Shown: positions 180-29,702 of the stretch, in pieces | How positions within the stretch are numbered: the first letter of the stretch is position 1 | Layout: each line of letters begins with the position of its first letter | DNA from: Streptomyces laurentii | GTDB lineage: Bacteria > Actinomycetota > Actinomycetes > Streptomycetales > Streptomycetaceae | DNA length: 64,000 nt | Reading direction: 5' to 3' | NCBI GenBank assembly: GCA_002355495.1 | Contig: AP017424.1 | Location: 6,079,501-6,143,500, forward strand | The notes under the pieces: generated by a model | The model's database searches: none | The model's input: only the letters and a program-made list of their open reading frames with translations | Told to the model about the DNA's origin: nothing | Translations under genes and position numbers: made by a program

Positions 180-530
180 ATGACTGACAGCAGCACCGTG
201 ATCGACTCCGGCTCGGTGGAGGAGCTGGTGAGCAGGCTCGTGCTGCTCGTCGCCCCCCAGAAGAACGAGGACAGCCGGCCCGAGCAGCGCCTCATCTCCG
301 AGCTGGGCTACCACTCGCTGGCCCTGGCCGAACTCGCCTTCACCTTGGAGGACCTGTTCGGGCTCGACCCGCTCCCGCCGGAGAAGGCGATGTCGCTGGA
401 GAGCGTCGGCGACGTCACCGGGCTCATCGCCGCCGAACTGGAAGGCGGCGCCGGGCACCTGCCGAACGACGACGACATCCAGCTGATCTTCGCCCGCTAC
501 GGCGTCGAGTGGGCGCCCCAGGCCGCGTAA
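180..530 (+). CDS. acyl carrier protein
   Basis: A 116-residue acyl carrier protein that would carry acyl chains on a 4'-phosphopantetheine arm. The core motif is GYHSLALAEL at about residues 42-51; the Ser of HSL is the expected attachment site. Most carriers have Asp before this Ser, so the His is a variation. Helix-rich segments around it (FTLEDLFGLDPLP) fit the ACP fold, and the length is slightly above the usual 80-100 because of a C-terminal tail rich in D and aromatic residues. The ATG follows a GGAGAAG ribosome-binding sequence about 5 bases upstream. No synthase is visible to the right, where a transposase remnant intervenes, so any partner enzymes must lie left of the window or have been lost. 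It could serve polyketide, peptide or lipid synthesis; the sequence does not decide. Confidence 0.85.
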   Translation: MTDSSTVIDSGSVEELVSRLVLLVAPQKNEDSRPEQRLISELGYHSLALAELAFTLEDLFGLDPLPPEKAMSLESVGDVTGLIAAELEGGAGHLPNDDDIQLIFARYGVEWAPQAA

Positions 531-605: not shown

Positions 606-1345
606 TCAGTCCGTGTTCGGCTTCGTGTACCCCGCGACCTCGCGCGGGCTCCGCGCGCCCGGGCCCACGTCATGCGCCGAGGGGCGCTCAATCTTGATGC
701 CCAGGATGGGGAGCGCTCGTCCGGGTTCATCGCGGATCGCCCGGGTGGTCTTGGCGATGTTGTCGGCTCCGAGGGTTCTCAGCACGCCGATGGCCAGGTT
801 GCGGAGGGTCGCCATGGCGCGAGGTGCGGTCCCGGTGTGAACGGTGGAGGCGTCCTCGCCGAAGGTGACGTCCCTGATGTGGCGCGAGGAGTTCTCCACT
901 CCCCAGTGCCCGCGGATCCCGGCGGCCAGGTCGGCCGGGCCGGTCTGGTGGGCGTCGAGACTGGTGACGGCGTAGACGCTCTCACGGGTCTCGCGTTCGC
1001 CGGTGGGCTTGCGGCGGCGGTGGACACGGATGGCCGGACGAGCGTGAGGGAAGGCGGTCCCGCCAAGTTGGTCCGCGATGGCGCAGGTCTTGATCGAGCG
1101 GGACTCCCGCCTGCCGTGCGCGGAGGTGGAGGCGGTGTGCCGGACCGGAATGTCCCGCCATGGCAGGGCCGCGAGCCGGCTGTAAGCGGTCGGCTGGTTG
1201 GTCTTGATCACGGCGATGTAGTGGGCCTTCTTGGACTCGACCAGCCATGAGATGTTCGCCCTGACCGAGTGCAGGGCGTCGAAGGTGACGACGGCGCCGG
1301 CCAGGTCCAGCGGCGCCGGCAGCGGCCGGAAGTGCGTGCAGGGCA
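606..1345 (-). pseudogene. truncated ISAs1-family transposase
   Basis: The C-terminal half of an ISAs1 (H-repeat) transposase. Reading leftwards from about 1345, one open frame gives FRPLPAPLDLAGAVVTFDAL, HSVRANISWLVESKKAHY, VIKTNQPT, then REIRHWGVEN-like GIRGHWGVENSSRHIRDVTF and FGEDAST, all characteristic of DDE_Tnp_1-assoc/ISAs1 proteins. The first catalytic region and the N-terminal domain are absent: homology stops abruptly at about 1345, less than 90 bases from jetA. No intact methionine start precedes the conserved part; the first ATG is at 1211. No terminal inverted repeats were identified. The element is a relic, and marks a past insertion or recombination at the left border of the Wadjet operon. 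Confidence 0.8.
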
Positions 1346-1427
1346 GGCATGATCAAGAGCGGTGCGAATCGGTCAAGTACTTAAGTCCCTGCCGATCACG
1401 GAGAACGGTCCGGGAGGATGGCATGCG

Positions 1428-2990
1428 ATGGACATGACTTCTCCGCGCCCGGCAGGCCCGCCGGACGGGTACGGGCCCTTCGCGCATCTCACCGCCCCGA
1501 ACGTGCTGCTCTACCGCTCGGTGATGCGCGCCTTCCTCGTGGCCAAGGAGCGGTTCGCCGTACACCTGCGGCCCGAGGACGTGTACGCCGCGCTGCCCGC
1601 CGCCGTACGGCCCGGTGAGTTGGAGGGGGTCGTCGGAGCCCTGGACAAGCTGGTCGAGTGGGGGAACCTGCGCGCCGACCCGGACACCGGGCGGGTCACG
1701 GCCGTCGAGGACTTCTACCGCAAGCGTTACATCTACCAGCTCACCCGGGAGGGTGAGGCGGCCGAGGAGGCCCTGTCCGCCTACGACGAGGCGCTCGGGC
1801 GTCGGGGTGCGCTCCAGGCCGTCGCGCTGCACGACATCGTCACCCAGCTCCGCGCCCTCCTCGTGCTGGCGGCCGAGGAGGCACCGGATCCGGCCAAGAC
1901 GCATCTCGCGCTGGACGGGCTCGCCAGTCGGTTCGGGGCGCTCGCCGACAACGCGCGGGCCTTCATGGGGTCCCTGCAGCGGACCATCGACCTCCACGAC
2001 GTGGGGGAGGAGGTCTTCCTCGCCTACAAGGACCAGCTCATCCAGTACCTGGAACGGTTCATCCAGGACCTCATCACCCTCGGCGGCCGCATCGCCCGGC
2101 TGATCCTGGAGCTGGAGGAGGGCGGGAGGATCGACCTCCTGCTGCGCGCCGCTGCCGCCCGCGAGGCCGCCGACGCCACGCCGCAGGAGGCCACGTACGC
2201 CGAGCAGGCCGCCTACGAGCGGTGGGCCGGCCGGTGGGCCGGGCTGGCGGCCTGGTTCCTCAGCCGGGACGGCCGGGAATCGCAGGCCCGGCTGCTGCGC
2301 GGCCGCGCGCTCGGGGCCGTACCCCAGCTGCTGGCCGTCGTACGGTCGCTGAACGAGCGGCGGGCAGGGCGTTCCGACCGGTCCGCCGACTTCCGTACGC
2401 TCGCCCGCTGGTTCGCCGAGGCCCCCGACGACGAGTCCCGGCACCGGCTGTGGCGCACCGCCTTCGGGCTGTACCCGGCCCGGCACCTCACGGTGGACGC
2501 CGAGACCCTGGCCGCCCGTGCCGCGCGCCCCGATCCCGCGTCCACACCATGGGCCGACGCCGAGCCGCTGCGCATCAGCCCGCAGCTGCGCCGCACCGGC
2601 AGCTACGAGCGGCGCGGCAAGCCCCGCAAGGTGGAGGACCGGCAGGAAGCGCGCCGCAGGCTCGCCGAGGTGGCCGTCAAGCAGGCCGCGGAGATCGCGG
2701 CCGCGCGGGCCCGGCTCGTCACCGACGGCGTCACCCGGCTGTCCGGGCTCGGGGAGCTCGACCCCGTCAGCTTCCGGCTCTTCCTCCAGCTCCTCGGGGA
2801 CGCCCTGGCCACCTGGCGGCCCGGTATGACGCACACGGTGGCCACCAGCAACGACGGGTCCATGGAGATCCGACTCACCGCCTTGGCCGATGGATCCGCG
2901 GCGGAGGTCCTCACTCCGGGCGGCATCTTCCGAGGCCCTGACCACACCATCGAGATCATCGATCTGGCGGAAGGAGACGACGGACTGTGA
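1428..2990 (+). CDS. jetA: Wadjet type I subunit JetA (TIGR02677, MukF-like kleisin)
   Basis: A 520-residue protein matching the TIGR02677 family, the kleisin-like JetA of Wadjet, which bridges the heads of the JetC SMC dimer. Seen in the sequence: an N-terminal winged-helix-like part (LTAPNVLLYRSVMRAFLVAKER), a helical central part with YRKRYIYQLTREGE and the long helix DQLIQYLERFIQDLITLGGRI, and a C-terminal charged helix with KVEDRQEARRRLAEVAVKQAAEIAAARA before a beta-rich end. I chose ATG 1428 (MDMTSPRP) because GGGAGG lies about 11 bases upstream; an in-frame GTG at 1362 is possible but has no ribosome-binding sequence. The stop overlaps the GTG of jetB by four bases. Only about 80 bases separate it from the transposase relic, so the promoter must lie there or within the relic. 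Confidence 0.92.
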   Translation: MDMTSPRPAGPPDGYGPFAHLTAPNVLLYRSVMRAFLVAKERFAVHLRPEDVYAALPAAVRPGELEGVVGALDKLVEWGNLRADPDTGRVTAVEDFYRKRYIYQLTREGEAAEEALSAYDEALGRRGALQAVALHDIVTQLRALLVLAAEEAPDPAKTHLALDGLASRFGALADNARAFMGSLQRTIDLHDVGEEVFLAYKDQLIQYLERFIQDLITLGGRIARLILELEEGGRIDLLLRAAAAREAADATPQEATYAEQAAYERWAGRWAGLAAWFLSRDGRESQARLLRGRALGAVPQLLAVVRSLNERRAGRSDRSADFRTLARWFAEAPDDESRHRLWRTAFGLYPARHLTVDAETLAARAARPDPASTPWADAEPLRISPQLRRTGSYERRGKPRKVEDRQEARRRLAEVAVKQAAEIAAARARLVTDGVTRLSGLGELDPVSFRLFLQLLGDALATWRPGMTHTVATSNDGSMEIRLTALADGSAAEVLTPGGIFRGPDHTIEIIDLAEGDDGL

Positions 2991-4234
2991 GTACTCCGCT
3001 CGCCGAAGTGCTGGACGGGCAGCACGCCGCAGAACTGCGCAAGGCCGCCCGCGCTCTGCTGAAGCAGCCTCTGCTGCTCGCCGGTGGCGCGTACGCCGAC
3101 GAGTTCCGTCTCGTCCGGCGGCACGCCTCCGACCTGCGCGAGTGGTTCGACCGCAACACCGGCTGGTCTCTCCAGGTCGACGCCGAGACCGCCCGGCTGG
3201 GCAAGATCCCGGCCCACCTCGCCGATGCCACCCACTCCGCCCGCGAGGCCACGCGCAGCGCCGCCCCCTTCACCCGCCGCCGGTACGTCCTGCTCTGCCT
3301 CGCCCTCGCCGCCCTCGAACGCGGCGAGGCGCAGATCGCGCTCGGCCGCCTCGCCGACCAGGTCGTCCTCGACGCCGCTGATCCGCAGCTGGCCGCGACG
3401 GGCATCCAGTTCACCCTTGACCGCCGCGACGAGCGCCTCGACCTCGCCGCCGTCGTACGCCTCCTGCTCGGCCTCGGAGTGCTGCGGCGCGTCGCCGGCG
3501 ACGAAGAGGCGTACGTCAGCGGCGCCGGAGACGTCCTGTACGACGTCGAACGGCGGGTGCTCGCCGGGCTGCTCGCGACCCGACGCGGCCCGTCCACCAT
3601 CCGGGCCGCCACCCTGGACGAGCGGCTCGTCGGGCTCACCGCCGAAACGGCCCTCGACAGCGACGAGCTCCGGTTCCGCGCGATGCGCCGCTCGCTGACC
3701 CGCCGACTGCTGGACGACCCCGTGCTCTACTACGACGAGCTGACCGACGCCGAGCTGGGCTACCTCACCCGCCAGCGCGGATTCCTCACCGCACGCATCA
3801 CCGAACTGACGGGCCTGGTGGCCGAGGTCAGGGCCGAAGGCATCGCCATGGTCGACCCCGACGACGACCTCACCGACCTCCGCATGCCGGAATCCGGCAC
3901 CCACGGTCACGTCACCCTGTTGCTGGCCGAGTACCTCACGAGGGCCGAAGGACCGGTCGTCTCCACGGCAGACCTTGAGCGCCGAGTCGCCGGACTGGCC
4001 GCCGAACACGGAGGCTTCTGGGCCAAGTCGGCCCGCGAGCCGGGAGCCGAGGGTGAGCTCGTGGAGCAGGCCGTCAGCCGGCTCGCAGCCCTGGGCCTGG
4101 TCGCCCGTACTCCTGACGGGGTGGTGCCGCGCCCGGCGCTCGCCCGGTACGCGGTCGGCGAGACCGTCGTACTCGAACCACGCACAGTCGGCACCGCTCA
4201 GGTGCCCGCACAGCGAAAGGCCCACCAGCGTTGA
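2987..4234 (+). CDS. jetB: Wadjet type I subunit JetB (TIGR02678, MukE-like)
   Basis: A 415-residue TIGR02678-family protein, the MukE/KITE-like subunit of Wadjet that binds the JetA kleisin and helps close the SMC ring. It opens with helical segments (AAELRKAARALLKQPLLLAG), then the family-typical REWFDRNTGWSLQVDAETARL at residues 48-70 and RRRYVLLCLALAALERGEAQ at about 97-117, followed by winged-helix-like repeats such as VVRLLLGLGVLRRVAGDEEAY. The GTG start at 2987 overlaps the jetA stop (GTGA), and its own stop overlaps the TTG of jetC (TTGA), so translation of the whole operon is probably coupled. Length and order are those of standard type I Wadjet. Nothing suggests truncation. Confidence 0.92.
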   Translation: MSTPLAEVLDGQHAAELRKAARALLKQPLLLAGGAYADEFRLVRRHASDLREWFDRNTGWSLQVDAETARLGKIPAHLADATHSAREATRSAAPFTRRRYVLLCLALAALERGEAQIALGRLADQVVLDAADPQLAATGIQFTLDRRDERLDLAAVVRLLLGLGVLRRVAGDEEAYVSGAGDVLYDVERRVLAGLLATRRGPSTIRAATLDERLVGLTAETALDSDELRFRAMRRSLTRRLLDDPVLYYDELTDAELGYLTRQRGFLTARITELTGLVAEVRAEGIAMVDPDDDLTDLRMPESGTHGHVTLLLAEYLTRAEGPVVSTADLERRVAGLAAEHGGFWAKSAREPGAEGELVEQAVSRLAALGLVARTPDGVVPRPALARYAVGETVVLEPRTVGTAQVPAQRKAHQR

Positions 4235-7200
4235 CCCCCCGTGCCGTACTCCCGGCCCCCGCGCGCGCCCGCTGGCAGCCCCTGCGGATCGGTCTTGTCG
4301 ATCTTTTCCATTACGACGTGGAGGAATTCCACTTCCGCGACGGGCGGCTGCTTCTCCGGGGGAACAACGGCACCGGCAAGTCCAAGGTGCTCGCCCTGAC
4401 CCTGCCCTTCCTCCTCGACGGGGACCTGAGCGCGCGGCGGGTTGAGCCCGACGGGGACGCCGGAAAGAGGATGGAGTGGAATCTGCTGCTCGGCGGAGAG
4501 CACCCCCACTCCGAACGGCTCGGCTACACCTGGGTGGAGTTCGGCCGTCGCGAAGAGGTGAGCGGCGAGGAGCAGTTCCGTACGCTCCTCTGCGGGCTCA
4601 AGGCCGTCAGCGGGCGCGGCATCGCCCGGCACTGGTGGGCGGTGACCGCCCAGCGGATCGACCACGCACCGGCCGAGGCGGTGTTGGAGGGGTCGCTCAG
4701 CCTCCTCGACGCCACCGGCACGGTGTTGTCCCGGGACCGGCTCATCGAGGCGGTCGCCGGACACGGGATGGTCTACGACCAGGCCAAGACCTATCGCCGG
4801 GCCGTCGACGAGGCGCTCTTCGGGCTCGGGGAGCAGCGCTACGGCGCTCTCGTGGACCTGCTCATCCAGCTGCGCCAGCCCCAACTGTCCAAACGCCCCA
4901 ACGAAGCCGCCCTCTCCCGAGCCCTCACCGAAGCGCTCCCGCCCATGGACCAGGCCGTCATCGCGGATGTGGCCGAGGCCTTCCGCTCCCTGGACGAGGA
5001 GAAGGAGGAACTACGGGCAGCCGGCGCGGCCGAGCGCGCGGCTTCCGCGTTCCTCGACCACTACCGGCGCTACGCCCGCATCGCCTCCCGCCGGCGCGCA
5101 CGTCTCCCGCGCAGCGAGCACTCGAAGTACGAGCACTTGCTGCGCGACCTCGCCGAGGCACAGGCCGAGAAGGCCGCGGCCGAGGAGGAGCGGGCGGCGG
5201 CTGATGAGCGGATCGCCGCGCTCACTGAGACGCAGGCCCGACTGGAGGCCGTCGACGCAGCCCTGCGCGAGGGCCCGGAGATGCGCAGCGCTCATGAACT
5301 GGAGCGGGCCGCCAAGGCGTTGGAGCGGTGCGGGCAGGACAGCGCACGCGCACGCGCCGACCGGGAGGAGGCCGCGCTGCTGCACACACGGGCGCTCGGG
5401 CGCCTCGCGGCGGCGGAGAACCGGCTTCAGGCCGCCCGGCACCTGGTCGAGGACACGCTTCGCCTCGCGCAGGAGACCGCCGAGGCGGCCCGACTGGACC
5501 TGCCCGGGGACGAGGGGCTGACGGCGGCCGAACTGCGCGCCGCCGTGACCGAGGCGACCGACCGCCGTCGCCGCACCCTCGCGCACGTCGAGGAGCTCGC
5601 GGACCGCGCCGAGGCGGCGGCGGCCGAACGCCGGGCCGCCGCACTGCGGCTCGACGAGTCGGAAGCCGACCTGGCGCACGCCGCCGAGGAACAGGGCGCG
5701 GCCGACGAGACCGTGACGGCCGCGGGCCGGGCCCTGGTGGATGCCGTACGCGAGCACGCGGGCCGGTGCGAGGAGCTCGCGTACGCCGACCCGGTCGGAC
5801 TGTTGGACGAGCTCCAGGAATGGGCCCGGCACCAGGACGGGCCCTACCCGGCACGCCGGCACGGGTCGGACGCACACAGCGCCACGGCAGCGGTACTCGC
5901 CGACCAGGCGGCGCAATCAGCGCAGCGCAGGGCAGCCCTGGCGGACCGTGCCCGAGACGCGGAGCAGGAGCTTGCCGAGCTGGAGGCAGGCGGCCGCCGT
6001 GGACCGCTGGCCCCGTACACCCGGAACCCCGGCCTGCGCGATCAGGCGGCCGGCGCCCCACTGTGGCGGCTGGTCGACTTCCGCGACGAGGTCGCGGACC
6101 GGGAGCGCGCCGGCCTGGAGGCGGCCCTGGAGGCGGCCGGGCTGCTGGACGCGTGGGTGCGCCCCGACGGCGCGGCCCTGGCGGCGGACGGTCACGACGT
6201 ACTCCTTGACCCGCGGACGGGTCCGGTCAACGGGTCATCGCTCGCCGACGTGCTGCGCCCGGCCGTCGACCACGGCGATGCCCAGGCGGCCCACGTGGGT
6301 GAGGAGACCGTGGGCCGACTCCTCTCGGCGATCGGCCTGGGCGAGGTTGCCGGGAACGCGGAGGCGGGCGCCGGGCCGGGGGGCACCGAGCCGACAGCGG
6401 GCACGTGGGCCGCTCCGGACGGGCGCTACCGCGCAGGCGTCCTCATCGGTCGGTGGGCCAAACCTGCGGCCGAGTACATCGGTGAGGGCGCCCGGGAAGC
6501 CGCGCGGCGCAGCCGTATCACCACCCTGCGCGCCGAACTCGCCCTTCTCCTGGGAGAGGAGGCAGCCGAGGCCGTGCACGCGCAGGCTCTGGAGGCCCGG
6601 CGCCGTACGCTCGACGCCGAACTGGCCGCGGTGCCCGACGACGGGCCGCTGACCCGGGCGCACGCCCGCGCGGCGGCTGCCGCCGACACCGCGCGCCGGG
6701 CCAGGTCCCGTCGTGAGGGACGGGCCGCCGACGCGCTGGCCGCAGCCGAGCGGTCGGGGCTGGCGAGCGCCGAGCTCCAGGAGGCCGCCACCGATCTGGG
6801 GCTGCCCCCGGACCGGCCGGCGCTGGCGGTTGTACGGCAGGCCCTCGTCGAACTCGCGGCCGTCCTGGCCGCACTCTGGCCCGCCCTGCGAGAGCGGACC
6901 GAAGCGGCACGGCAGGCGCAGGAGGAGCGTGAGGAAGCCGGCCGGGCAGGGGAGCGCACCGCCGAACTCGCTCTGCGCGCAGAGGAGGCCGCCCGCGAGG
7001 CGGCAGCCGCGGACGAGCGGCTCACCACGCTGCGCTCGACCGTGGGCGCGGCCGTGGCCGAGCTGGAACGGCGGCTGGCGGAGACCGCGGAGGCCCTGCG
7101 CGGCTGCGCTGCCGATCGGCGGTTGTCCGAGGACCGTCGCACGGAGGCGGACCGGCGGGCCAACCGGGCCGAAGGCGGGATCGTACAGCTGGAGAAGGCC

Positions 7201-8376
7201 GTCACCGAGGCTGCCTCCGCGCGCTCCGAGGCCATCGCCGCGCTCCAGCGCTTCACCGCCACCGGGCTGATCACGGTCGCACTTCCCGAACTCGCCGTAC
7301 CGGCCACCGCCGACGGCCCGTGGGCGGCCACCCCGGCCATCGCCCTCGCCCGTTCCCTCGAAGCGGAGCTGTCGATGACGGACGACTCGGACGGTGCTTG
7401 GGAGCGCGTACAGCGGCGTCTGAGCGAAGAGCTCAAAACCCTGCAGGACGCGCTGTCCCGGCACGGCCATACCGCCTCGGCCCGGATGGTCGAGGACGGG
7501 ATGATCGTCGACATCGTCTACCAGGGCCGCGAGCGCGCCGTACCCGAACTCGCCGAGGCACTGGCGGTCGAGGTCGGCGAACTCACCCGCATCCTCTCCG
7601 CGAACGAACGCGAAATCCTCGAAACCCACCTCATCACCGAGGTCGCGGGCACCCTTCAAGAGCTGATCGCGACCGCCGAACGGCAAGTACTCGCCATGAA
7701 CGCCGAGCTGGAGGACCGTCCGACCTCCACCGGCATGACCCTGCGCCTGGTGTGGCGGGCCTCCCGCAAGGCCCCCGCCGGCCTTGCCCAGGCCCGTGGC
7801 CGACTGCTCCAGACCGCCGACGCCTGGACTCCCGAGGAACGGGCCGCGGTCGGGGAGTTCCTGCAGACGCAGATCGCCCGCCAGCAGACCGAGGACGCGG
7901 CCGGCAGCTGGCTGGAACACCTCACAGCGGCGCTCGACTACCGCTCCTGGCACGAGTTTGCCGTCGAGAGGCAGCAGCACGGTCGCTGGGTACCCGCCAC
8001 CGGTCCCGCTTCCGGAGGCGAACGCGTCCTGGCGGTCTCCGTGCCCTTGTTCGCCGCGGCCTCCTCGCACTACGCGAGCGCGGCCAGCCCGTACGCACCA
8101 CGACTCGTCACCCTGGACGAGGCGTTCGCCGGCGTCGACGACGACTCGCGCGCCAAGTGCCTCGGCCTCCTGCACGCCTTCGACCTGGATGTGGTCATGA
8201 CCAGCGAACGGGAATGGGCCTGCTATCCGCAGGTACCGGGCATCGCCATCGCCCAGTTGTCCCGCGTCGACGAGGTGGCCGCCGTTCTGGTCACCCGATG
8301 GGAATGGGACGGCACGGCTCGTACCCGTCACGAGGACCCGGTGCGCACGCCGGACCCGGAGCCCCTGTGGACGTGA
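4231..8376 (+). CDS. jetC: Wadjet type I SMC ATPase JetC (TIGR02680, MukB-like)
   Basis: A 1381-residue SMC-like ATPase, the DNA-extruding motor of Wadjet. Residues about 44-52 hold the Walker A loop GNNGTGKSK. A very long Ala/Glu/Arg-rich coiled coil follows (about 250-1150), interrupted near 590-750 by a globular hinge-like part (GPLAPYTRNPGLRDQAAGAP, WVRPDGAALAADGHDVLLDP). The C-terminal head carries the ABC signature SGGERVL near 1261 and Walker B LVTLDEAFAGVDDDSRA near 1292. All ATPase motifs appear intact. The likely start is a TTG that overlaps the jetB stop. In characterised Wadjet systems JetABC extrudes DNA loops, senses small circular DNA and hands it to JetD for cutting. Confidence 0.95.
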   Translation: MTPRAVLPAPARARWQPLRIGLVDLFHYDVEEFHFRDGRLLLRGNNGTGKSKVLALTLPFLLDGDLSARRVEPDGDAGKRMEWNLLLGGEHPHSERLGYTWVEFGRREEVSGEEQFRTLLCGLKAVSGRGIARHWWAVTAQRIDHAPAEAVLEGSLSLLDATGTVLSRDRLIEAVAGHGMVYDQAKTYRRAVDEALFGLGEQRYGALVDLLIQLRQPQLSKRPNEAALSRALTEALPPMDQAVIADVAEAFRSLDEEKEELRAAGAAERAASAFLDHYRRYARIASRRRARLPRSEHSKYEHLLRDLAEAQAEKAAAEEERAAADERIAALTETQARLEAVDAALREGPEMRSAHELERAAKALERCGQDSARARADREEAALLHTRALGRLAAAENRLQAARHLVEDTLRLAQETAEAARLDLPGDEGLTAAELRAAVTEATDRRRRTLAHVEELADRAEAAAAERRAAALRLDESEADLAHAAEEQGAADETVTAAGRALVDAVREHAGRCEELAYADPVGLLDELQEWARHQDGPYPARRHGSDAHSATAAVLADQAAQSAQRRAALADRARDAEQELAELEAGGRRGPLAPYTRNPGLRDQAAGAPLWRLVDFRDEVADRERAGLEAALEAAGLLDAWVRPDGAALAADGHDVLLDPRTGPVNGSSLADVLRPAVDHGDAQAAHVGEETVGRLLSAIGLGEVAGNAEAGAGPGGTEPTAGTWAAPDGRYRAGVLIGRWAKPAAEYIGEGAREAARRSRITTLRAELALLLGEEAAEAVHAQALEARRRTLDAELAAVPDDGPLTRAHARAAAAADTARRARSRREGRAADALAAAERSGLASAELQEAATDLGLPPDRPALAVVRQALVELAAVLAALWPALRERTEAARQAQEEREEAGRAGERTAELALRAEEAAREAAAADERLTTLRSTVGAAVAELERRLAETAEALRGCAADRRLSEDRRTEADRRANRAEGGIVQLEKAVTEAASARSEAIAALQRFTATGLITVALPELAVPATADGPWAATPAIALARSLEAELSMTDDSDGAWERVQRRLSEELKTLQDALSRHGHTASARMVEDGMIVDIVYQGRERAVPELAEALAVEVGELTRILSANEREILETHLITEVAGTLQELIATAERQVLAMNAELEDRPTSTGMTLRLVWRASRKAPAGLAQARGRLLQTADAWTPEERAAVGEFLQTQIARQQTEDAAGSWLEHLTAALDYRSWHEFAVERQQHGRWVPATGPASGGERVLAVSVPLFAAASSHYASAASPYAPRLVTLDEAFAGVDDDSRAKCLGLLHAFDLDVVMTSEREWACYPQVPGIAIAQLSRVDEVAAVLVTRWEWDGTARTRHEDPVRTPDPEPLWT

Positions 8377-9647
8377 ACAGGAATCCGGTCGACGAAGCCC
8401 GCCTGCGCCGCCTCCTTGGCGGGCCCGATCTGGCCTGGCTGCTGGAGCGCGTACGCCGCCGGCTGGAGCGCGGGCAGCCACTCACCGGACCCGTCTCCCT
8501 GGCCGCGGCGACCCCAGCCCAACGGGCCGCGGCCGAGCGGCTGCTGGGCCGGCCCCCGGGTGGTGGCAGGGCGCTGACGGTCCGGCTCGACGCCGTGGAC
8601 GCCGTACTGGTCAGATCAGGCGTCAGCCCCGAGGGCCTGACGGCGGCCGTGACGAGGCTCACCGGGCCCGTCGTCCCTCTCGAAGAGGTCCGCCGGAGTG
8701 AGGATCAGGCATGGGTGGAGGCCTACGCTCCGCTCACCGCACTCGCCGATGAGGTTCCGTCCCTCGCGGAATGGGCCGGCCGGGTACGCGAAGACGGCCT
8801 TGTGCGGCGTCTCGCCCGTACGCCCGAGGCCGCCCGACCGCTGCTCGATCGGGTGGCTCGCGTCCTGCGGGAGCTGCCGGCCGAGCCGCCGCGCTCCCTG
8901 TCCGTGTTCGCCGCGGACATCCTGGGCAGCGCCCACGCACTGGACGACGGGACACCCCCGGCGACGATCTGCCTCTCCGGCATCCGTGCCCTCACCGGAC
9001 ATCCGGACGGGGCGGGCGCTGCCTGGCGGCGGGCCGCCTGGGCCTCCGCCGGCCTGCTCCGTGACGACGTCTCCTCCACGGTCCTCACCCTCAACCTCCG
9101 TGGGACCCCCGCTCTGGACTGGATGGCAGACATGGGGGAACCGTGCGTACTCACCCTTCGCCAGCTCGCCCACCGTCCGCCCCGGACGACGCCGTCGGTG
9201 GTCCACATCTGTGAGAATCCCGCCGTCCTGTCGGCCGCGGCCGACACCTACGGCCCGGACGCCCTCCCGCTGGTCTGCCTCCAGGGCCAGCCGTCGGCTG
9301 CCGCCCTGGCCCTCCTGGCACACCTCCACGAGCTCGGTGCCGCCCTCCGCTACCACGGCGACTTCGACTGGGGCGGAATGCGCATCGCCACGACGCTGCA
9401 CCAGCACGTGCCGTGGCAGCCGTGGCGCTACACGGCCGACGAATACCGTGCGGCGGTAGCCGCTGCCAGCCCTGCTCCCCCGCCTCTGACCGGGATGGCG
9501 GCTCTGTCGCCTTGGGATCCGGATCTGGCGGCTGCTCTCGCTGAACACGGCGTCCGTATAGAGGAGGAGGCTGTTCTGGACTCGTTGCTGGCAGACCTTA
9601 GACAGGACGTTCGGCCGGTGAGACATGCGACGTGCCGAGACCTGTAG
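8373..9647 (+). CDS. jetD: Wadjet type I nuclease JetD (TIGR02679, TOPRIM)
   Basis: A 424-residue TIGR02679 protein, the topoisomerase VI A-like nuclease that cleaves plasmids trapped by JetABC. A helical, winged-helix-bearing N-terminal half precedes a C-terminal TOPRIM domain: the acidic motif is ICENPAVL (Glu near residue 280) and the metal-binding DxD motif is HGDFDWGGMRIA (about 327-338). These are the expected catalytic residues, so the nuclease looks functional. The GTG start at 8373 shares four bases with the jetC stop; another in-frame GTG lies two codons upstream. It is the last gene of the operon, and no obvious terminator hairpin was seen directly after it. With jetA, jetB and jetC the system is complete. 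Confidence 0.93.
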   Translation: MNRNPVDEARLRRLLGGPDLAWLLERVRRRLERGQPLTGPVSLAAATPAQRAAAERLLGRPPGGGRALTVRLDAVDAVLVRSGVSPEGLTAAVTRLTGPVVPLEEVRRSEDQAWVEAYAPLTALADEVPSLAEWAGRVREDGLVRRLARTPEAARPLLDRVARVLRELPAEPPRSLSVFAADILGSAHALDDGTPPATICLSGIRALTGHPDGAGAAWRRAAWASAGLLRDDVSSTVLTLNLRGTPALDWMADMGEPCVLTLRQLAHRPPRTTPSVVHICENPAVLSAAADTYGPDALPLVCLQGQPSAAALALLAHLHELGAALRYHGDFDWGGMRIATTLHQHVPWQPWRYTADEYRAAVAAASPAPPPLTGMAALSPWDPDLAAALAEHGVRIEEEAVLDSLLADLRQDVRPVRHATCRDL

Positions 9648-9944
9648 CGGCCGGGGCCGACGCCAGGACTGGTGACGCTCGTTTGACGCACGGACCCTCA
9701 CGAGGGGCGTGAATGGCGATTCATGTGGCCTTTGACCTGCTCCTTCGCTGACCGACCTCGATTCGTACATGTTCCCGATGACGCATCATGTGGAGTGCGT
9801 GGCGATTCTGGAGCCGGTGAAGAAGGACGCCTGACCTGGGGATTCTTTGACCCGCGGCGGACCGGCCGAGGGGAGACCGGCCGCCGGGCAGTGAGGTGAC
9901 CCCGCCCGTCGGCGCTGTGCCGGCGGGACGGTGCGTGGTGCGGG
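9648..9944. other. intergenic region with a gene relic
   Basis: About 300 bases without an intact gene. On the + strand, between a TGA at 9733 and a TGA at 9832, an open stretch of 32 codons reads ...LTDLDSYMFPMTHHVECVAILEP.... The core MFPMTHHVECVAIL closely resembles the C-terminal end of TrmA/RlmC/RlmD-type uracil-5 RNA methyltransferases (E. coli TrmA ends FPYTHHMECGVLL from memory). No other part of such an enzyme is visible, so this is a possible vestige and not a gene. The remaining bases show nothing recognisable. Confidence 0.4.
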
Positions 9945-10862
9945 TCAGCCCGTGGGGCGGGCCCAGTGCTGCCAGGGCTGTGCCGCGACCCACTCGGTCA
10001 CGGGGGTGAGGCGTACGCCGAAGGCGGTCTGGGTGTCGGCAGGGGACGGGGCCAGCAGGCCGGCGGCCCGGCCCGTGCCGGCGTGGTGGTAGATGCCGGC
10101 GACGCCGGCGGCGGCCTCCGGACCGATCGCCCGGGCCAGGCCTTCCTCGAAAGCGGCGACTTCCAGGGGGAGATAGGCGACCTCACGGCCGAGCGCGCGC
10201 CCGAAGGCGGCGGCGAGTTCGGGGCCGGTGAGCACCTCGGCGCCACCCACGTTCCACACGCGTCCCGTGGGTACGTCCTCGTCGAGGGCGCGGGCGGCGA
10301 CGCGGGCGAGGTCGGCGTGGGACATCCAGGCGACCTTCCGGTCGGCGGGCAGCGGGTAGGCGAGGACGCCGTCGTCGACGACGGCGGGGCCGTTCCAGGG
10401 GCTGAAGAGGTTCTCCAGATAGACCGGGGGCCGTATGGCCAGGGCGGGGACCGTGCCGTCGAGGAGGATCCGCTCGGCCAGCCGACGGGTCTCGAAACCG
10501 GCGTACGGGGTGGTCTCGTCCGGGACCGGCGTGTTGACGTTGTAGACGAGGCGGCGCACCCCGGCCTCCCGGGCGGCCTCGGTGATGTTGTGGGCGTACC
10601 CGGCCACGGTCGCGGAGTCGTACACCAGCGGCATCACGACGACGGCGTGGCTGACGCCGTCGAAGGCGGCGCGCAGCGCCTCGGGGTCGCCCAGGTCGCC
10701 GTGGAACGGGATGACCCCGGACGGCAGGGCCGCGGCCTTCGCCCTGTCCCGGACGAGCCCGCGCACGTGGTGCCCGTCGGCGGCGAGCAGCCGGGCCACG
10801 GCCCCGCCCTGGAAACCATTGGCGCCGGTCACGAGGACGCGCTTGCGGTGCTCCTGTTTCAT
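9945..10862 (-). CDS. NmrA-like/atypical SDR NAD(P)-binding protein
   Basis: A 305-residue atypical short-chain dehydrogenase of the NmrA or NAD(P)H-binding type. The N-terminal Rossmann motif is VLVTGANGFQGGAVARLLAADGH (residues 8-30; GxxGxxG). LVRDRAKAAAL after strand 2 suggests NADP(H) preference. The classical Tyr-x-x-x-Lys pair is not evident, which is usual for NmrA-like redox sensors and quinone reductases. The ATG at 10862 has an AGGAAAGG sequence upstream; an open frame continues further but is outside the family alignment. It is transcribed away from a cupin-AraC regulator over a 321-base gap, and such pairs are often regulator and target. The substrate cannot be predicted. Confidence 0.85.
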   Translation of the reverse strand: MKQEHRKRVLVTGANGFQGGAVARLLAADGHHVRGLVRDRAKAAALPSGVIPFHGDLGDPEALRAAFDGVSHAVVVMPLVYDSATVAGYAHNITEAAREAGVRRLVYNVNTPVPDETTPYAGFETRRLAERILLDGTVPALAIRPPVYLENLFSPWNGPAVVDDGVLAYPLPADRKVAWMSHADLARVAARALDEDVPTGRVWNVGGAEVLTGPELAAAFGRALGREVAYLPLEVAAFEEGLARAIGPEAAAGVAGIYHHAGTGRAAGLLAPSPADTQTAFGVRLTPVTEWVAAQPWQHWARPTG

Positions 10863-11183
10863 GTCGTGCCTTTCCTGAGGTGAGATGCGGTGAGGTGGGG
10901 CGGCGGCGGCCGCCGGGATGCCGGGGCCTGCGACGAAGACCTGGCGCGGTCTCCAGGAAGGGGAGGGCGCGAAGTCGCGTGGAATGGAGGCCCGGTTCGG
11001 CGGCTGGACCACGGATACCGGCGCCGAAACACACGATCCTCATGGAACGAGTTCCCCACGAAATGCGACCCCGTTCCTGCCGGCCAGCTGACCGGCCAAG
11101 GCTCCCGGAATTTCCCTCTCATCGTTCTCGGATCGCTGGCTACGATCAATAAAGCGAGATCCGAACCGCTTTAAGGAGCGTCC
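10863..11183. promoter_or_regulatory. divergent promoter region with inverted repeat
   Basis: The 321-base divergent region between the SDR gene and the AraC-type gene. It holds an inverted repeat with arms TCGGATCGCT (11128-11137) and AGCGAGATCCGA (11153-11164; two extra bases in the right arm) around an AT-rich core TACGATCAATAAA. The repeat lies just upstream of the AAGGAG ribosome-binding sequence of the regulator, where an autoregulatory operator could sit. The other part of the gap shows no gene or motif I recognise. Confidence 0.4.
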
Positions 11184-12158
11184 GTGGGGGACGACGTACT
11201 GACCGCGCTGCTGCGGCCGTTGTGGCTGATCGACACCTTCCACAGCGTCTGGGAGGCGGGCGGGACCTGGGGGGTGAAGGGGCACCAGGACAGCTGCGCG
11301 ATCGTGCACCACATGGTCCGGGGCGGCTGTGTGATCACCTTCGAGGACGGTTCCGACCCGGTGGACCTGCGGGAGGGGGACCTCGCGATCTTTCCGCACG
11401 GCACGGCCCATTCGTTCTCCGCCGAGCGCGGGGCGCGTACCACTCCGCTGTCAGCGCTGGTGCCGAACGTGAGCCTGGGGCGGTCAGGGCTGGTCAGGGT
11501 GGGGACGGCGCCGTACGAGACCCGGATGCTCTGCGCCAGCCTGCGCTACAGCCCGCTGACGGACCCGGGACTCTATGGCGGGTTGCCCCGGATCATCGTG
11601 CTGCGGCGGCCCACGCTGGAGGGCGAACCGCTGCTGATGTCGACGCTGGCCGCACTGCCCTCCGAGATCGCCCGGACCGCCCCGGGCGCGCGGATGGTGG
11701 CCCTGCGAGCCTTCGAGACCGTCTTCGTCCTGGCCCTGAGGGTCGCCCTGGAACGGCTCACGGAAGAGTTGCCGGCGCTGCGGGCCCTGCGGCACCAGGG
11801 CATCAGCAAGGCACTGATGGCGATCCACGGTTCGTATGCCGAGCCCTGGACGCTGGAGACGCTGGCGAGGAAAGCGGGCATGTCGCGGTCGGCCTTCGCC
11901 CAGCAGTTCAAGGAGCTGGTGGGCGAGTCACCCATGCGTCACCTCATGGCGCGTCGGCTCCAGGAGGCGAAGCGGCTGCTCTCGGACACCTCGGTGGCGC
12001 AGCAGGAAATCGCGCAGCGTGTGGGATATCGCAGTCAGGTCGGATTTCACCTGGCGTTCCGCAAGGAATTCGACATGACCCCGGGCGTGTATCGCTCCGG
12101 GCGGAAAGTCGGGCGAGTCGGAGAACCGGCGCGGGAAACGTCGAAGAATTTCCTGTAA
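11184..12158 (+). CDS. cupin-AraC family transcriptional regulator
   Basis: A 324-residue AraC-type activator. Residues about 10-190 form a cupin_6 ligand-binding domain (GGTWGVKGHQDSCAIVHHM, then LREGDLAIFPHGTAHSF, a typical cupin turn). The C-terminal part is a double helix-turn-helix: WTLETLARKAGMSRSAFAQQF and EIAQRVGYRSQVGFHLAFRKEFDMTPGVYR, the standard AraC signature. The GTG start at 11184 follows AAGGAG by five bases. Members of this subfamily often control a neighbouring oxidoreductase, and here the divergent SDR gene is the obvious candidate target. The effector is unknown. Confidence 0.92.
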   Translation: MGDDVLTALLRPLWLIDTFHSVWEAGGTWGVKGHQDSCAIVHHMVRGGCVITFEDGSDPVDLREGDLAIFPHGTAHSFSAERGARTTPLSALVPNVSLGRSGLVRVGTAPYETRMLCASLRYSPLTDPGLYGGLPRIIVLRRPTLEGEPLLMSTLAALPSEIARTAPGARMVALRAFETVFVLALRVALERLTEELPALRALRHQGISKALMAIHGSYAEPWTLETLARKAGMSRSAFAQQFKELVGESPMRHLMARRLQEAKRLLSDTSVAQQEIAQRVGYRSQVGFHLAFRKEFDMTPGVYRSGRKVGRVGEPARETSKNFL

Positions 12159-13028
12159 TCGAAGGGGTGTTGCAGTTCCTGTGGCACGTGATTCTTTCGG
12201 GTCCGGTCGCGCCGACCTGGCGAGGCGAGAGGCGGCGCGGTCGGATTGTCTGATGGCTCGTCAGATTCCTTAGGTGGCTGCTTCATTGGTGAGACGTGGA
12301 CTGGGGGCGCATGTGGGTGCTTGGCGGCGCGCGGGGGTGAATTGACAGGCGCGCGGGTGAGTGGCGCGCGCTGAACTCGCCGCTGATCGCGTCATCCTGC
12401 AGCCGGATCCGGTCGTTGCGCCCGTTCCGATGACTGTTTCCGGGCGAGGGCGCACGCTGCCGTATTACTGTGCATTGACCTTCTCTTGAACTCCCTTTTG
12501 TGAAATGTGAGGGCAGAGCGTCCCTGGGGGAGGGATGTGCCCATCGTGTCGGCCGTCCGCACACCTTCGCCTCGACGAACAGGCGCCGTCGCTGCCGCTG
12601 TCCTGAGCGCCCCGATCGGGTGCGGACGAAGCGCGTTGCCGGACGTACGTCGAACCAGCCTGAACCGAGCCGTGTTCAGGCCCTCGTCGGGGTGACCCGA
12701 AGCAAGACCCCGTCGGCCGAGGACGGACAACCCGGCCGTGAGGCGAGGCGTGTCCCGGGCTCGCGTACATCCGTGTGAGCCCGGCTGTCCCGCACCCTGA
12801 CCAGGGCTGCCGGCTCCGGCGTTCCTCGCCCGTTCGGCTGACCACCCCCTCACGCGACACGTAAGGCGCCGACCCGCGTGCGCGACCCGGGCAGGCGGGA
12901 CGCACCCGCCGTCCATCGGCCCGGCGTGCCCTCGGGGCGCGGGCCGCGCATCACCCGTTCCGGCGTTCGGGAACGCGGACCCGTGGGTTCGCGGGCCCGC
13001 TCCGCAGAGACCCCTTGGGGGGACACAC
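12159..13028. other. 870-base region without a recognised gene
   Basis: Open frames on both strands here are arginine- and proline-rich and have the look of high-GC shadow frames; none resembles a family I know. An inverted repeat TCTGA-N7-TCAGA occurs at 12249-12265. The stretch 12470-12500 is unusually AT-rich for this genome (TTGACCTTCTCTTGAACTCC and TTTTGTGAAATG) and could hold a promoter. The last 500 bases precede the SulP gene and may be its leader. GGGGGGAC just before 13029 acts as ribosome-binding sequence. Confidence 0.4.
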
Positions 13029-27278: not shown

Positions 27279-27680
27279 ATGAGTAGGTACGAGAGGTACG
27301 ACGTCACCGACGAGCAGTGGGAGGGCCTGGCCCAGGTCGTCCCGCTGCGCGGCAGGGATGAATGGCCGTCCAGGATCGATCACCGTGCGATCCCCGAGCA
27401 GCAAGAGGCGGCCGAACAGCGCCGGATGATCGTCCTGCGCGTCCAGGTCTTCGCGGACGCGCGCGAGGTCGCGGAGTACCTCATCGCCCAGATCCCCGTG
27501 CTGCTCGACCTGACGAGCGCGGACACCGAGGTCGCCAAGCGCATCCTCGACTTCAGCAGCGGCGTCGTCTTCGGCCTCGGCAGCGGGATGCACCGGGTCG
27601 ACCGCAACGTCTTCCTGCTGGCGCCGGCCGGCACCGAGGTCGAGGGCGCCGAGGACGAGAGCGAGGCGGGCAACGCCTGA
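27279..27680 (+). CDS. SepF-like cell division protein
   Basis: A 133-residue DUF552/SepF-family protein. The conserved core runs from RMIVLRVQVFADAREVAEYL (about residue 49) through IPVLLDLTSADTEVAKRILDF to SGVVFGLGSGMHRVDRNVFLLAP, the FtsZ-binding, ring-forming domain. The N-terminal membrane-binding amphipathic helix of true SepF is not obvious, and the gene is far from ftsZ, so this is one of the SepF-like paralogues (SflA/SflB type) that Streptomyces carries besides SepF. ATG 27279 has GGGAGG upstream. It may influence septum formation or hyphal growth; this is by family. Confidence 0.85.
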   Translation: MSRYERYDVTDEQWEGLAQVVPLRGRDEWPSRIDHRAIPEQQEAAEQRRMIVLRVQVFADAREVAEYLIAQIPVLLDLTSADTEVAKRILDFSSGVVFGLGSGMHRVDRNVFLLAPAGTEVEGAEDESEAGNA

Positions 27681-27756
27681 GGCGCGCTCCCTCGTTCGTA
27701 GGAAGGTCGTTCAGACGTAACGGTTCGGCGTGCGGAGGGCTGCGTACCTTCCGGTC

Positions 27757-29172
27757 ATGACCAACACCGGTGGCAGCGCCCCCGACCGTCCGCCCCGTCC
27801 ACCCCACCCATCTCACCATTCCCCACCGCCTCTTCCGCCCTGGCCGGCTCGTCCGTCCGGGCCGCAGCCGCCGCCCGCTTCCGCGGACGGGCGCGTGCCC
27901 GCGCAGGGACGGCGCCCGGGCCAGGTGCCCTTCCGCGCCCGCCCGCTCCCCGCCCCCACCGCGGAGGCCGCCCTCGCGCTCGCGGCCGCGCTCTCGCCCG
28001 TACGGGTCGACGAGGCGGCGCCGGTGCCCGTCGAGCGGACCACTGGCGGGGCGCTGCTCCGGCCCACCGTCACCGAACTGCGGCTTTCGGCCTTCGGGGT
28101 GCACCGCGGGACCGTCCTGCCGCTCGGCCCCGTGACACTGCTGCGCGGGGCGAGCGGCAGCGGGAAGACCACCGCCCTGCGCGCGTACGAGGCGCTCGCG
28201 CGGCTCGGGGCGGGCGCGGAGCTCGAGGAGGTGCTGCCGGACGCCGCCGACCGCGTACCGGAGCGGTCGCGGGCCGACGCGCAAGGCCGGCGCGGCTTCC
28301 GGATCGGCTGCACGGTCGACGGCCCGGTGGGACCGGTCCACCTCGACCTCGCCGTGCAGGCCGAACCGACCCTGCGGATCGTCGGGGAACGGCTCACCTC
28401 GCCGGACCGCACCCTGTTCACCACCGCGCTGCGGGACCCGGGGCGCAGCACCGTCCAGGCCGAGTGGCACACCGCCGGCAACACCCCGGTGACCCGCGCC
28501 CCGTTCCCGGACGACGTGCTCGGCACGGCACTCCTGCCGCTGCGGGTCGCCGGGAAGACGCAGGGGCAGCGGGACGTCCTGGCCGCCGCGGAACAGGTGG
28601 TCGTCGGACTGCGTGCGGCCTTCCCCTGTCACCCCCTGCCGCACCGGATGCGGCAGCCCGTGCCGGTCGGCGAGGGCCGGCTGCGGCGCGACTGTCACAA
28701 CCTGGCCGCCGTGCTGCACCGCACCGCCACCGAGTGCCCGCGCCGCCACGCCCGCCTGGCGGCCCTCGCGACGGCGGGATGTGCCGGTACGGTCGCGGGG
28801 CTCGGGTTACGGGAATCGGAGACGGGCGGCACGGTCGAGGCCGTCCTGGAGCGGGCCGGCCTGCCGGACATGGCACTGGGCCGGCTCGGCGACGGCGAAC
28901 TGCGCTATCTCGCCCTCGGGCTCGTCCTGCTGACCGGCCCCGGGGTGCTCGCGATGGACCCGGTCGCCGAGGTGCCGCAGGCCATGCAGACGCTCACCGT
29001 GCTCGCCGACGGGCTCGATCACGCGCTCGATGCCCGGCAACTGGCCGCTCTGTTCGGCCTGGCCGGCGAGATCTGCGCGAGCGGACACGTCCGGCTGGTC
29101 GCGGCCGTGGGGGAGGGGGTTACGGGTGTGACGGACGTGCCCGGTGTGACGATGGTAGACCTGGGTGCGTGA
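27757..29172 (+). CDS. P-loop ATP-binding protein (AAA/ABC-like)
   Basis: A 471-residue ATPase. The first 75 residues are Pro/Ser-rich and probably disordered. From about residue 105 there is an ABC/AAA-type start: LRLSAFGVHRGTVLPLGPVT then the Walker A LLRGASGSGKTTALRAYEAL (about 127-146). Late in the protein, LGDGELRYLALGLVLLTGPGVLAMD resembles a degenerate signature plus Walker B. The predicted fold is close to the RecF/SMC-like ATPases used in overcoming-lysogenisation or DNA-repair proteins, but I recognise no named family. Its stop overlaps the GTG of the MazG-like gene (GTGA), so the two are co-translated and may act together. Confidence 0.75.
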   Translation: MTNTGGSAPDRPPRPPHPSHHSPPPLPPWPARPSGPQPPPASADGRVPAQGRRPGQVPFRARPLPAPTAEAALALAAALSPVRVDEAAPVPVERTTGGALLRPTVTELRLSAFGVHRGTVLPLGPVTLLRGASGSGKTTALRAYEALARLGAGAELEEVLPDAADRVPERSRADAQGRRGFRIGCTVDGPVGPVHLDLAVQAEPTLRIVGERLTSPDRTLFTTALRDPGRSTVQAEWHTAGNTPVTRAPFPDDVLGTALLPLRVAGKTQGQRDVLAAAEQVVVGLRAAFPCHPLPHRMRQPVPVGEGRLRRDCHNLAAVLHRTATECPRRHARLAALATAGCAGTVAGLGLRESETGGTVEAVLERAGLPDMALGRLGDGELRYLALGLVLLTGPGVLAMDPVAEVPQAMQTLTVLADGLDHALDARQLAALFGLAGEICASGHVRLVAAVGEGVTGVTDVPGVTMVDLGA

Positions 29173-29576
29173 CTGAACTTGATGTGGCGGGCCTGCAGCG
29201 CAGGCTCGCCGACTTCGCCGCGGCCCGCGACTGGCAGCCCTTCCATACGCCCAAGAATCTGGCGGCGGCGCTGAGCGTGGAGGCGGCCGAACTCCTCGAG
29301 ATCTTCCAGTGGCTGACGCCCGAGGAGGCGGACCGGGTGATGGCGGACCCGGACACGGCGCACCGGGTCCGCGACGAGGTCGCGGACGTCCTCGCCTATC
29401 TGCTGCAGTTCTGCGGCGTGCTCGGCGTCGATCCGCTGACGGCTCTCGCGGCCAAGATCGACCGCAACGAGATCCGCTTCCCTGCCCGGGGACGCCGGGG
29501 CGACGACACGTCGTCCGGCCCCGGCGGCGAGCCCCGAGAGGCGGGAGACGACCGTGATCGTCACTCTACGGAGTGA
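29169..29576 (+). CDS. MazG-like nucleotide pyrophosphohydrolase
   Basis: A 135-residue all-alpha NTP pyrophosphatase. Metal-binding motifs are SVEAAELLEIFQWL (ExxE, about residues 36-49) and RDEVADVLAYLLQFC (ExxD, about 73-87), with KNLAAAL before them and KIDRNEIRFP at the end, as in the RS21-C6/MazG group that hydrolyses non-canonical or methylated dCTP-like nucleotides. The start overlaps the stop of the preceding ATPase, and the last codon lies inside a near-palindrome shared with another promoter (see 29559). Role: probably cleansing the nucleotide pool. Confidence 0.88.
   Translation: MTELDVAGLQRRLADFAAARDWQPFHTPKNLAAALSVEAAELLEIFQWLTPEEADRVMADPDTAHRVRDEVADVLAYLLQFCGVLGVDPLTALAAKIDRNEIRFPARGRRGDDTSSGPGGEPREAGDDRDRHSTE
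29559..29576. promoter_or_regulatory. CGTCACTCTACGGAGTGA element (copy 1)
   Basis: An inverted repeat with arms TCACTC and GAGTGA around four bases. It differs at only one of 18 positions from the element at 37219, 7.7 kb away. It overlaps the end of the MazG-like gene and lies about 130 bases upstream of the DUF6099 gene. The binding protein is unknown; spacing does not fit the BldD consensus. Confidence 0.5.
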
Positions 29577-29581
29577 TCGAG

Positions 29582-29608
29582 TTATCCTCAACGAGCTTCC
29601 TGTCCACA
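29582..29608. other. two DnaA-box-like sequences
   Basis: TTATCCTCA (29582-29590) and CTGTCCACA (29600-29608) each differ by one base from the consensus TTATCCACA or the streptomycete form TTGTCCACA. They lie in a 126-base intergenic, AT-richer stretch upstream of the DUF6099 gene. They could titrate DnaA or regulate the downstream gene, or be chance. Confidence 0.35.
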
Positions 29609-29702
29609 GATTTCCGAATTCCTCTGGTGTTCAGGCTCGGTCGGCCTCACGCTGGGTAATGGAATGAGTGAGCGGTAAGTCGTCAGAACGGGGGCGTCGT
29701 TG

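What the first reader, a model, noticed from the sequence alone, without database searches (positions are those of the whole stretch)
1428..9647. Complete Wadjet type I anti-plasmid system at a transposase scar
All four subunits in standard order, all four-base overlaps, and all ATPase and TOPRIM motifs intact. The ISAs1 relic ends less than 90 bases upstream, suggesting arrival or rearrangement by recombination.
Basis: partly seen in the sequence, partly recalled or inferred. Interest (0 to 1): 0.62.

Follow-up and report, generated by a model that had tools for sequence, protein, structure and literature searches.

The report
Anti-plasmid system in stacked mobile island
An intact four-gene anti-plasmid defence system (Wadjet, of type II rather than type I) sits at the end of a chain of inserted DNA blocks piled up at the tail of one RNA-modifying enzyme gene in a Streptomyces-like bacterium, a landing site where related genomes hold other defence systems.

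Summary
The genes are real and intact: jetABCD at 1428-9647, three 4-base overlaps, ATPase and TOPRIM motifs present. But they are Wadjet TYPE II, not type I. The ISAs1 relic is real (truncated at 1337) but is not the likeliest carrier. A 69-bp repeat just beyond jetD (9770-9838) copies the 3' end of a single-copy TRAM/uracil-5 RNA methyltransferase gene 67 kb to the left. In the host chromosome three copies bound a 15.5-kb block with carotenoid genes and a 51.6-kb block with an NRPS cluster plus Wadjet. Of 80 related Wadjet-II loci, 19 hold the repeat (25 copies; about 0.5 expected), 15 as an extra copy, and 7 hold the methyltransferase gene itself. In sister species the same 8.5-kb Wadjet unit has other neighbours, BREX genes among them. 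Other genomes hold pPIWI-RE or type I R-M genes at the site. No Pfam tyrosine recombinase lies inside the array in 8 of 8 genomes; one further genome has one. Best reading: standard Wadjet-II cargo in an accretion island of mostly recombinase-less blocks, moved by helpers not identified here. The Wadjet is ordinary; the shared landing site is the interesting part.

The parts
606..1337 (-). ISAs1-family transposase relic, N-terminal 195 residues lost; broken end abuts the Wadjet unit
   Evidence: NF033564 E 3.7e-20; tblastn of a 418-aa relative: residues 196-416 at 1337-672, 82%; one match in the genome
1336..1427 (+). left edge and upstream region of the Wadjet unit shared with relatives
   Evidence: homology with L003 and L004 starts at 1336, with L005, L006, L062, L067 at 1347-1357; compared by eye
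1428..2990 (+). jetA (type II), DUF2397/TIGR02677
   Evidence: PDLC00536 E 1.1e-205; PDB 9qe0 chain E 'JetA' E 1.1e-24 over residues 19-462
2987..4234 (+). jetB (type II), DUF2398/TIGR02678
   Evidence: PDLC00543 E 2.2e-150
4231..8376 (+). jetC (type II), SMC-like ATPase, TIGR02680, TTG start
   Evidence: PDLC00553 E 0; TIGR02680 1182.7 bits; PDB 9qe0 chain A 'JetC' E 1.9e-64, two stretches, best 12-765
8373..9647 (+). jetD (type II), DUF3323+DUF2399, TOPRIM-type nuclease; C-terminal tail longer than in sister species
   Evidence: PDLC00557 E 2.8e-145; tail compared
9673..9690 (+). TGACGC-type direct repeats, inferred recombinase arm sites of the right end
   Evidence: sequence checked; two or more TGACGC in the 150 bases before 16 of 30 non-gene repeat copies examined
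9770..9838 (+). 69-bp copy of the 3' end (last codons, stop and 4 bases) of the RNA methyltransferase gene; right boundary repeat (inferred att site)
   Evidence: other copies at G000:C1:6022151-6022232 (gene end) and 6037700-6037777; 25 copies in 19 of 80 Wadjet loci
180..530 (+). phosphopantetheine carrier protein between the NRPS cluster and the IS relic, in the same block
   Evidence: PF00550 E 7.4e-05; NRPS genes to its left

Best explanation
1428-9647 is an intact type II Wadjet operon (EptABCD-like). Inferred action: JetABC, an SMC motor, extrudes DNA; on a small circular plasmid it runs out of DNA and stalls, and the TOPRIM nuclease JetD then cuts. The chromosome and linear or very large DNA escape. 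The operon is the rightmost cargo of a 67-kb island made of two blocks stacked at the 3' end of a core RNA methyltransferase gene. Each block ends in a copy of that gene end, so the gene stays whole. Blocks of this kind share end sequences, in at least two versions, but mostly carry no recombinase of their own, so they are moved by helper recombinases acting in trans, or in cis after a functional element lands beside them. In this lineage the Wadjet unit was joined to an NRPS cluster at a break inside an ISAs1 copy. Shown: operon, type, repeats, block structure, recurrence in other species. Inferred: plasmid cutting, excision and transfer, the helper.
For: Type II models for all four proteins; long matches to solved 'JetC' and 'JetA' chains 9qe0/9qe1. 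Three repeat copies in the host, copy 1 being the end of a 463-aa TRAM/tRNA_U5-meth_tr gene. S. omiyaensis and S. zaomyceticus match the window only over 1336-9836 (95%) and diverge from each other exactly after the repeat. Repeat in 19 of 80 Wadjet loci, 25 copies, none for two control versions; 7 of the 25 are the end of the gene itself, 18 are extra copies in 15 loci; density elsewhere predicts about 0.5 copies. Wadjet lies between repeats in 6 of 10 arrays read and behind one in a seventh. Three or more TGACGC within 400 bases behind the gene in 9 of 20 relatives, against 5 of 870 other windows of the same stretches. On the JetC tree the repeat label needs 12 changes, at least 11 forced. 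The gene is single-copy in 39 of 41 genomes, the two misses being 77% and 81% complete.
Against: No excision, circle or transfer was observed. No empty site joined to the window's right flank was found: among the listed matches 9840-13000 has only partial ones, the longer ones at 64-69%, in relatives, and the longer ones do not lie beside the methyltransferase gene; genes at window 27279-30188 are shared behind the gene in 2 of 20 relatives. 61 of 80 Wadjet loci show no repeat within the DNA held, some of them cut short by contig ends. Only 4 of 20 relatives chosen without regard to Wadjet show a second repeat in the stretch read. 14 of 30 non-gene repeat copies lack two TGACGC in the 150 bases before them. 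No plasmid interference is tested here.
Confidence: 0.8

Rival explanations
1. The ISAs1 element itself carried or placed the Wadjet operon.
For: The relic breaks at 1337, at the left edge of the unit shared with sister species.
Against: The transposase piece is the only match in the genome and is truncated at the end facing Wadjet. Six relatives whose JetC is 83-97% identical have other left flanks. The repeat right of jetD belongs to the methyltransferase gene. IS terminal repeats were not searched for.
Confidence: 0.08
2. The repeats are not att sites: the region is simply hypervariable and gene-end copies spread by homologous recombination between islands.
For: No Pfam tyrosine recombinase inside the arrays of 8 of 8 genomes; DNA behind the gene differs in nearly all relatives.
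Against: 24 of 25 copies near Wadjet have the same orientation relative to it. TGACGC repeats cluster behind the gene in 9 of 20 relatives against 5 of 870 control windows. Copies recur away from the gene: on two linear plasmids, where only the gene's last 23 residues match in the 48-49 kb read, and at second chromosomal places in G004 and G013.
Confidence: 0.17
3. The operon is a chromosome-handling condensin (MksBEF-like) rather than a defence system.
For: JetABC belong to the SMC-kleisin-KITE kind; review passages say that MksBEF of P. aeruginosa, likely a JetD-less descendant, organises chromosomes (PMC10586767).
Against: jetD is found in 81 of 81 loci and keeps both motifs in 80; the operon is accessory, absent behind the gene in 20 of 20 relatives, and sits beside BREX genes in S. 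omiyaensis.
Confidence: 0.07

Closest known systems
Wadjet type II / EptABCD of Mycobacterium smegmatis
   Same: Gene families, order and motifs. EptABCD is the first implicated Wadjet (PMC10586767, passages); that it is type II is recalled.
   Different: Host, and position in an accretion island. No activity data.
Wadjet type I (JetABCD of Pseudomonas aeruginosa, Corynebacterium glutamicum)
   Same: Same division of labour: SMC motor plus TOPRIM nuclease (PMC10586767, passages).
   Different: Different protein families; only weak matches to JetC1 and JetD1.
AICE/DAICE accretion in Streptomyces (PMC9513070, passages)
   Same: Tandem elements at one gene end, flanked by direct repeats, some without integrase.
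   Different: There the site shown is tRNA-Arg and elements carry traB; an rlmN insertion, another methyltransferase gene, is also reported. Here the site is a TRAM/uracil-5 methyltransferase gene and the blocks read carry biosynthetic or defence genes among others.
Cis-mobilizable elements (CIMEs) of streptococci (recalled; PMC7563491 and PMC5704250 seen as search listing only)
   Same: Att-flanked blocks without recombinase, stacked with others.
   Different: Different hosts, site and cargo; mobilisation not tested here.
PAISt island of S. turgidiscabies (PMC4057263, start of abstract in a listing)
   Same: Site-specific island at the 3' end of a protein gene, modular.
   Different: 8-bp palindrome at the end of bacA; virulence cargo.

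Membership tests
Wadjet type II | JetA2/JetB2/JetC2/JetD2 (DUF2397, DUF2398, TIGR02680, DUF3323+DUF2399) in one operon | tested here: met
   overlaps
Wadjet type II | intact JetC ATPase and JetD TOPRIM motifs | tested here: met
   Walker B read by eye
Wadjet type II | restricts small circular plasmids | not testable with these tools
   needs transformation assays
Wadjet type I | JetA1/JetB1/JetC1/JetD1 families as best match | tested here: not met
   type II models lead for all four; no type I match listed for JetA or JetB
Att-flanked accretion island / CIME | direct repeats that copy the target gene end, several in tandem | tested here: met
Att-flanked accretion island / CIME | no recombinase gene inside the blocks | tested here: met
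   PF00589 at E 0.001: 0 matches inside the array in 8 of 8 genomes; serine recombinases only by regex. A ninth genome, G007, has a tyrosine recombinase in its block
Att-flanked accretion island / CIME | excision and mobilisation by a neighbour element | not tested
   needs wet work
AICE | integrase, Rep and FtsK-like TraB in the element | tested here: inconclusive
   no PF00589 in the island; 34 of its proteins or fragments scanned with Pfam showed no FtsK (one search listed only E up to 1e-10); not every ORF was scanned
ISAs1 composite transposon | IS copies on both sides of the cargo | tested here: not met
   one truncated transposase match in the whole genome; IS ends not searched

The most novel reading that the evidence does not exclude
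Streptomyces possess an integron-like cassette economy: non-autonomous blocks of roughly 6-50 kb with common TGACGC-armed ends and a methyltransferase-gene-end att site, moved in trans, that shuttle whole defence systems (Wadjet II, BREX, pPIWI-RE, type I R-M) and biosynthetic clusters between chromosomes and linear plasmids.
Probability: 0.3. Interest if true: 0.78.

Novelty: new variant of a known kind. Interest (0 to 1): 0.5.

Why it matters
The operon itself adds one more type II Wadjet, a type that the 2023 review passages call less studied than type I. The landing site matters more: it says where to look for defence systems and perhaps movable biosynthetic clusters in Streptomyces, since the tail of one core gene marks the spot. 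Islands of this sort would probably be missed by searches that start from integrase or traB genes. It also offers an explanation of how a defence operon and a biosynthetic cluster came to share one inserted block.

Tried and rejected
Type I assignment: rejected by profile scores. ISAs1 as carrier: one truncated copy. The G007 tyrosine recombinase as the common helper: no close homologue (E up to 1e-40) in the host or in 12 of 14 other genomes; found in G021 on another contig and in G015 176 kb from the methyltransferase gene; no relative in viral contigs. Phage origin: no match of the repeat plus left end in 50,697 phage records; an exact left-end pattern is absent from viral contigs; one viral contig has a methyltransferase gene end followed by GntR- and FtsK-like genes (names from my reading of the ORFs). 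Solved-structure search for JetD gave no usable match (best E 0.13); JetB was not searched. Six literature searches did not show this site in their listings (with 0 papers, 63, 66, 82, 85), nor did the passages seen of PMC9513070 and PMC3218068; only open-licence PMC text is held, so this is weak.

Rows dropped or weak: G020 has only a 22-bp match and was not counted; two of its 20 regions are short (10.9 and 5.2 kb behind the gene). The 20 genomes were picked by hand from the 80 loci (14 with a repeat in the locus, 6 without), so the density behind the expectation is biased upward, and its thresholds differ from those. In one search, 151 relatives were found and the best 80 kept; two of the 80 loci (L026, L079) lie on one contig, and some loci are cut short. 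The JetC tree holds 80 rows (window plus 79, one JetC without Walker A left out), was built by the quick method, and the label clusters more than shuffled labels (mean 18 changes, 0 of 500 as low). For one search I took 9 of the 20 relatives and 7 of the Wadjet loci, picked partly for their ends; the unpicked count is. In one search two of 9 proteins had no PADLOC match at 1e-10: an S. omiyaensis gene beyond the second repeat, and the G007 recombinase.

Full report
OBSERVATION. Four genes lie head to tail at 1428-9647, overlapping by four bases each. PADLOC, NCBIfam and Pfam agree on their families. All four are type II Wadjet: JetA2, JetB2, JetC2, JetD2. Type I models match only JetC and JetD, and weakly. 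The motifs for ATP binding and for the TOPRIM nuclease are present and near-invariant in the window and 80 relatives. Two solved entries, 9qe0 and 9qe1, carry chains named JetC (best stretch residues 12-765 of 1381, a second stretch besides) and JetA (19-462 of 520); that they are type II is my inference from the match. The host genome, 8.03 Mb in one contig, has one JetC. That the host is a Streptomyces is inferred from its relatives.

THE SCAR. Upstream, on the other strand, is an ISAs1 transposase piece. A relative in L084 is 418 residues long; here residues 196-416 remain and the break is at 1337. It is the only match in the genome.

THE UNIT AND ITS EDGES. 80 loci with close relatives of the operon were fetched. 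Of 11 of them compared with the window, S. omiyaensis and S. zaomyceticus match at 95% over 1336-9836 and, for pieces over 60 bases, nowhere else in the first 20 kb; four more species match from about 1347-1357 to 9598, with other flanks. The first two are 95% alike over 14.9 kb and part company right after the repeat described next.

THE REPEAT. At 9770-9838 lies a piece of coding sequence ending in a stop. It occurs three times in the host, all on one strand: at 6022151, at 6037700 and in the window. The first is the true end of a 463-aa gene with TRAM and tRNA_U5-meth_tr domains. That gene is single-copy in 39 of 41 genomes searched; the two misses are incomplete genomes. Between copies 1 and 2 (15.5 kb) lie carotenoid-type genes: lycopene cyclase, phytoene synthase, polyprenyl synthase and amine-oxidase-type proteins. 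Between copies 2 and 3 (51.6 kb) lie an NRPS cluster, the IS relic, and Wadjet.

RECURRENCE. Of 80 Wadjet loci (1.80 Mb), 19 hold the repeat, 25 copies in all; the reversed and the complemented query gave none. Seven loci hold the methyltransferase gene itself, and 7 of the 25 copies are that gene's own end; 18 are extra copies, in 15 loci. From 52 copies in 20 genomes of about 181 Mb in all about 0.5 copies would be expected. Ten arrays were read: the methyltransferase gene heads 9 of 10; the tenth contig begins 2.8 kb before its first repeat. Wadjet lies between repeats in 6 of 10 and behind one in a seventh. Left of the gene the order of genes is conserved between species; right of it almost nothing is. 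On a JetC tree the label 'repeat nearby' needs 12 changes, 11 of them forced, so Wadjet seems to have entered or left this site many times; loci cut short could add false changes.

OTHER CARGO. The S. omiyaensis block carries BrxHI, BrxD, BrxC/PglY and PglW genes beside Wadjet, and MkoB lies beyond the second repeat; S. zaomyceticus holds close homologues of the BREX-type genes. S. olivoreticuli has a pPIWI-RE set in its first block and an MkoA/MkoC-like protein beyond the second repeat. G004 has an HsdM-HsdS-HsdR set in an 11.3-kb block. Two linear Streptomyces plasmids carry repeat copies that bound a shared block with T7SS- and SseB-family genes; in the 48-49 kb read of each only the last 23 residues of the methyltransferase match. 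Five large proteins of three other blocks matched nothing in PADLOC at 1e-15.

ENDS AND RECOMBINASE. Two or more TGACGC lie in the 150 bases before 16 of 30 non-gene repeat copies examined. Behind the gene, 9 of 20 relatives have three or more in 400 bases, against 5 of 870 other windows of the same stretches. Other ends are of a different kind. A strict left-end pattern gave 7 sites in 6 of 41 genomes and none for its reversed control: five of the seven lie behind the gene or a host repeat, two (G004, G013) lie elsewhere beside a repeat copy without the gene. Phage_integrase (PF00589) has 6-16 matches per genome in 8 genomes but none inside the arrays. One further relative, G007, has a 19.8-kb block with a tyrosine recombinase; it has no close homologue in the host, so it is a candidate only.

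HOW IT LIKELY WORKS. Wadjet: the reviewed mechanism is loop extrusion on circular DNA and cutting by JetD, with linear and large DNA spared (PMC10586767, passages; PMC12287153, passages). The review says most work was done on type I, so its transfer to this operon is inference. The island: site-specific accretion, as described for AICEs in Streptomyces (PMC9513070, passages); movement itself is inferred.

RESULTS AGAINST. No empty site joined to the window's right flank was found. Of 20 relatives taken without regard to Wadjet only 4 show a second repeat in the stretch read behind the gene, and none has jet genes there. 61 of 80 Wadjet loci show no repeat within the DNA held, so this site is one of several homes.

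VERDICT. Observation confirmed, type corrected, context reinterpreted. The operon is a new member of a known kind; the island family is a variant of known accretion islands that I did not find in the listings of six searches.

Noticed in passing
9602-9647: jetD has a 14-residue longer C-terminal tail than in S. omiyaensis and S. zaomyceticus: their stop codon is a sense codon here.
   Followed up: partly
1368-1396: The region before jetA holds a short inverted repeat (ATCGG...CCGAT), also seen in sister species, a possible promoter or operator (by eye).
   Followed up: no
L117 2222-17700 (G000:C1:6022222-6037700): A carotenoid-type gene cluster occupies its own repeat-bounded 15.5-kb block, that is, a possibly mobile biosynthetic cluster.
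   Followed up: partly
L172 2938-29566 and L173: Linear Streptomyces plasmids carry repeat-bounded blocks, in L172 two in tandem, one with putative T7SS-secreted and SseB-family proteins shared by both plasmids.
   Followed up: partly
L165 10209-17763: A pPIWI-RE type defence set lies in the first block behind the methyltransferase gene of S. olivoreticuli.
   Followed up: no
L005 5591-6945: Left of another Wadjet copy the repeat is followed by an IS110-type transposase fragment and a truncated DUF262-like gene (names from my reading, not from a profile).
   Followed up: no
L079: Streptomyces sp. SM10 has, on the same contig as a full JetC (L026), a second JetC match covering only residues 411-1372.
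   Followed up: no
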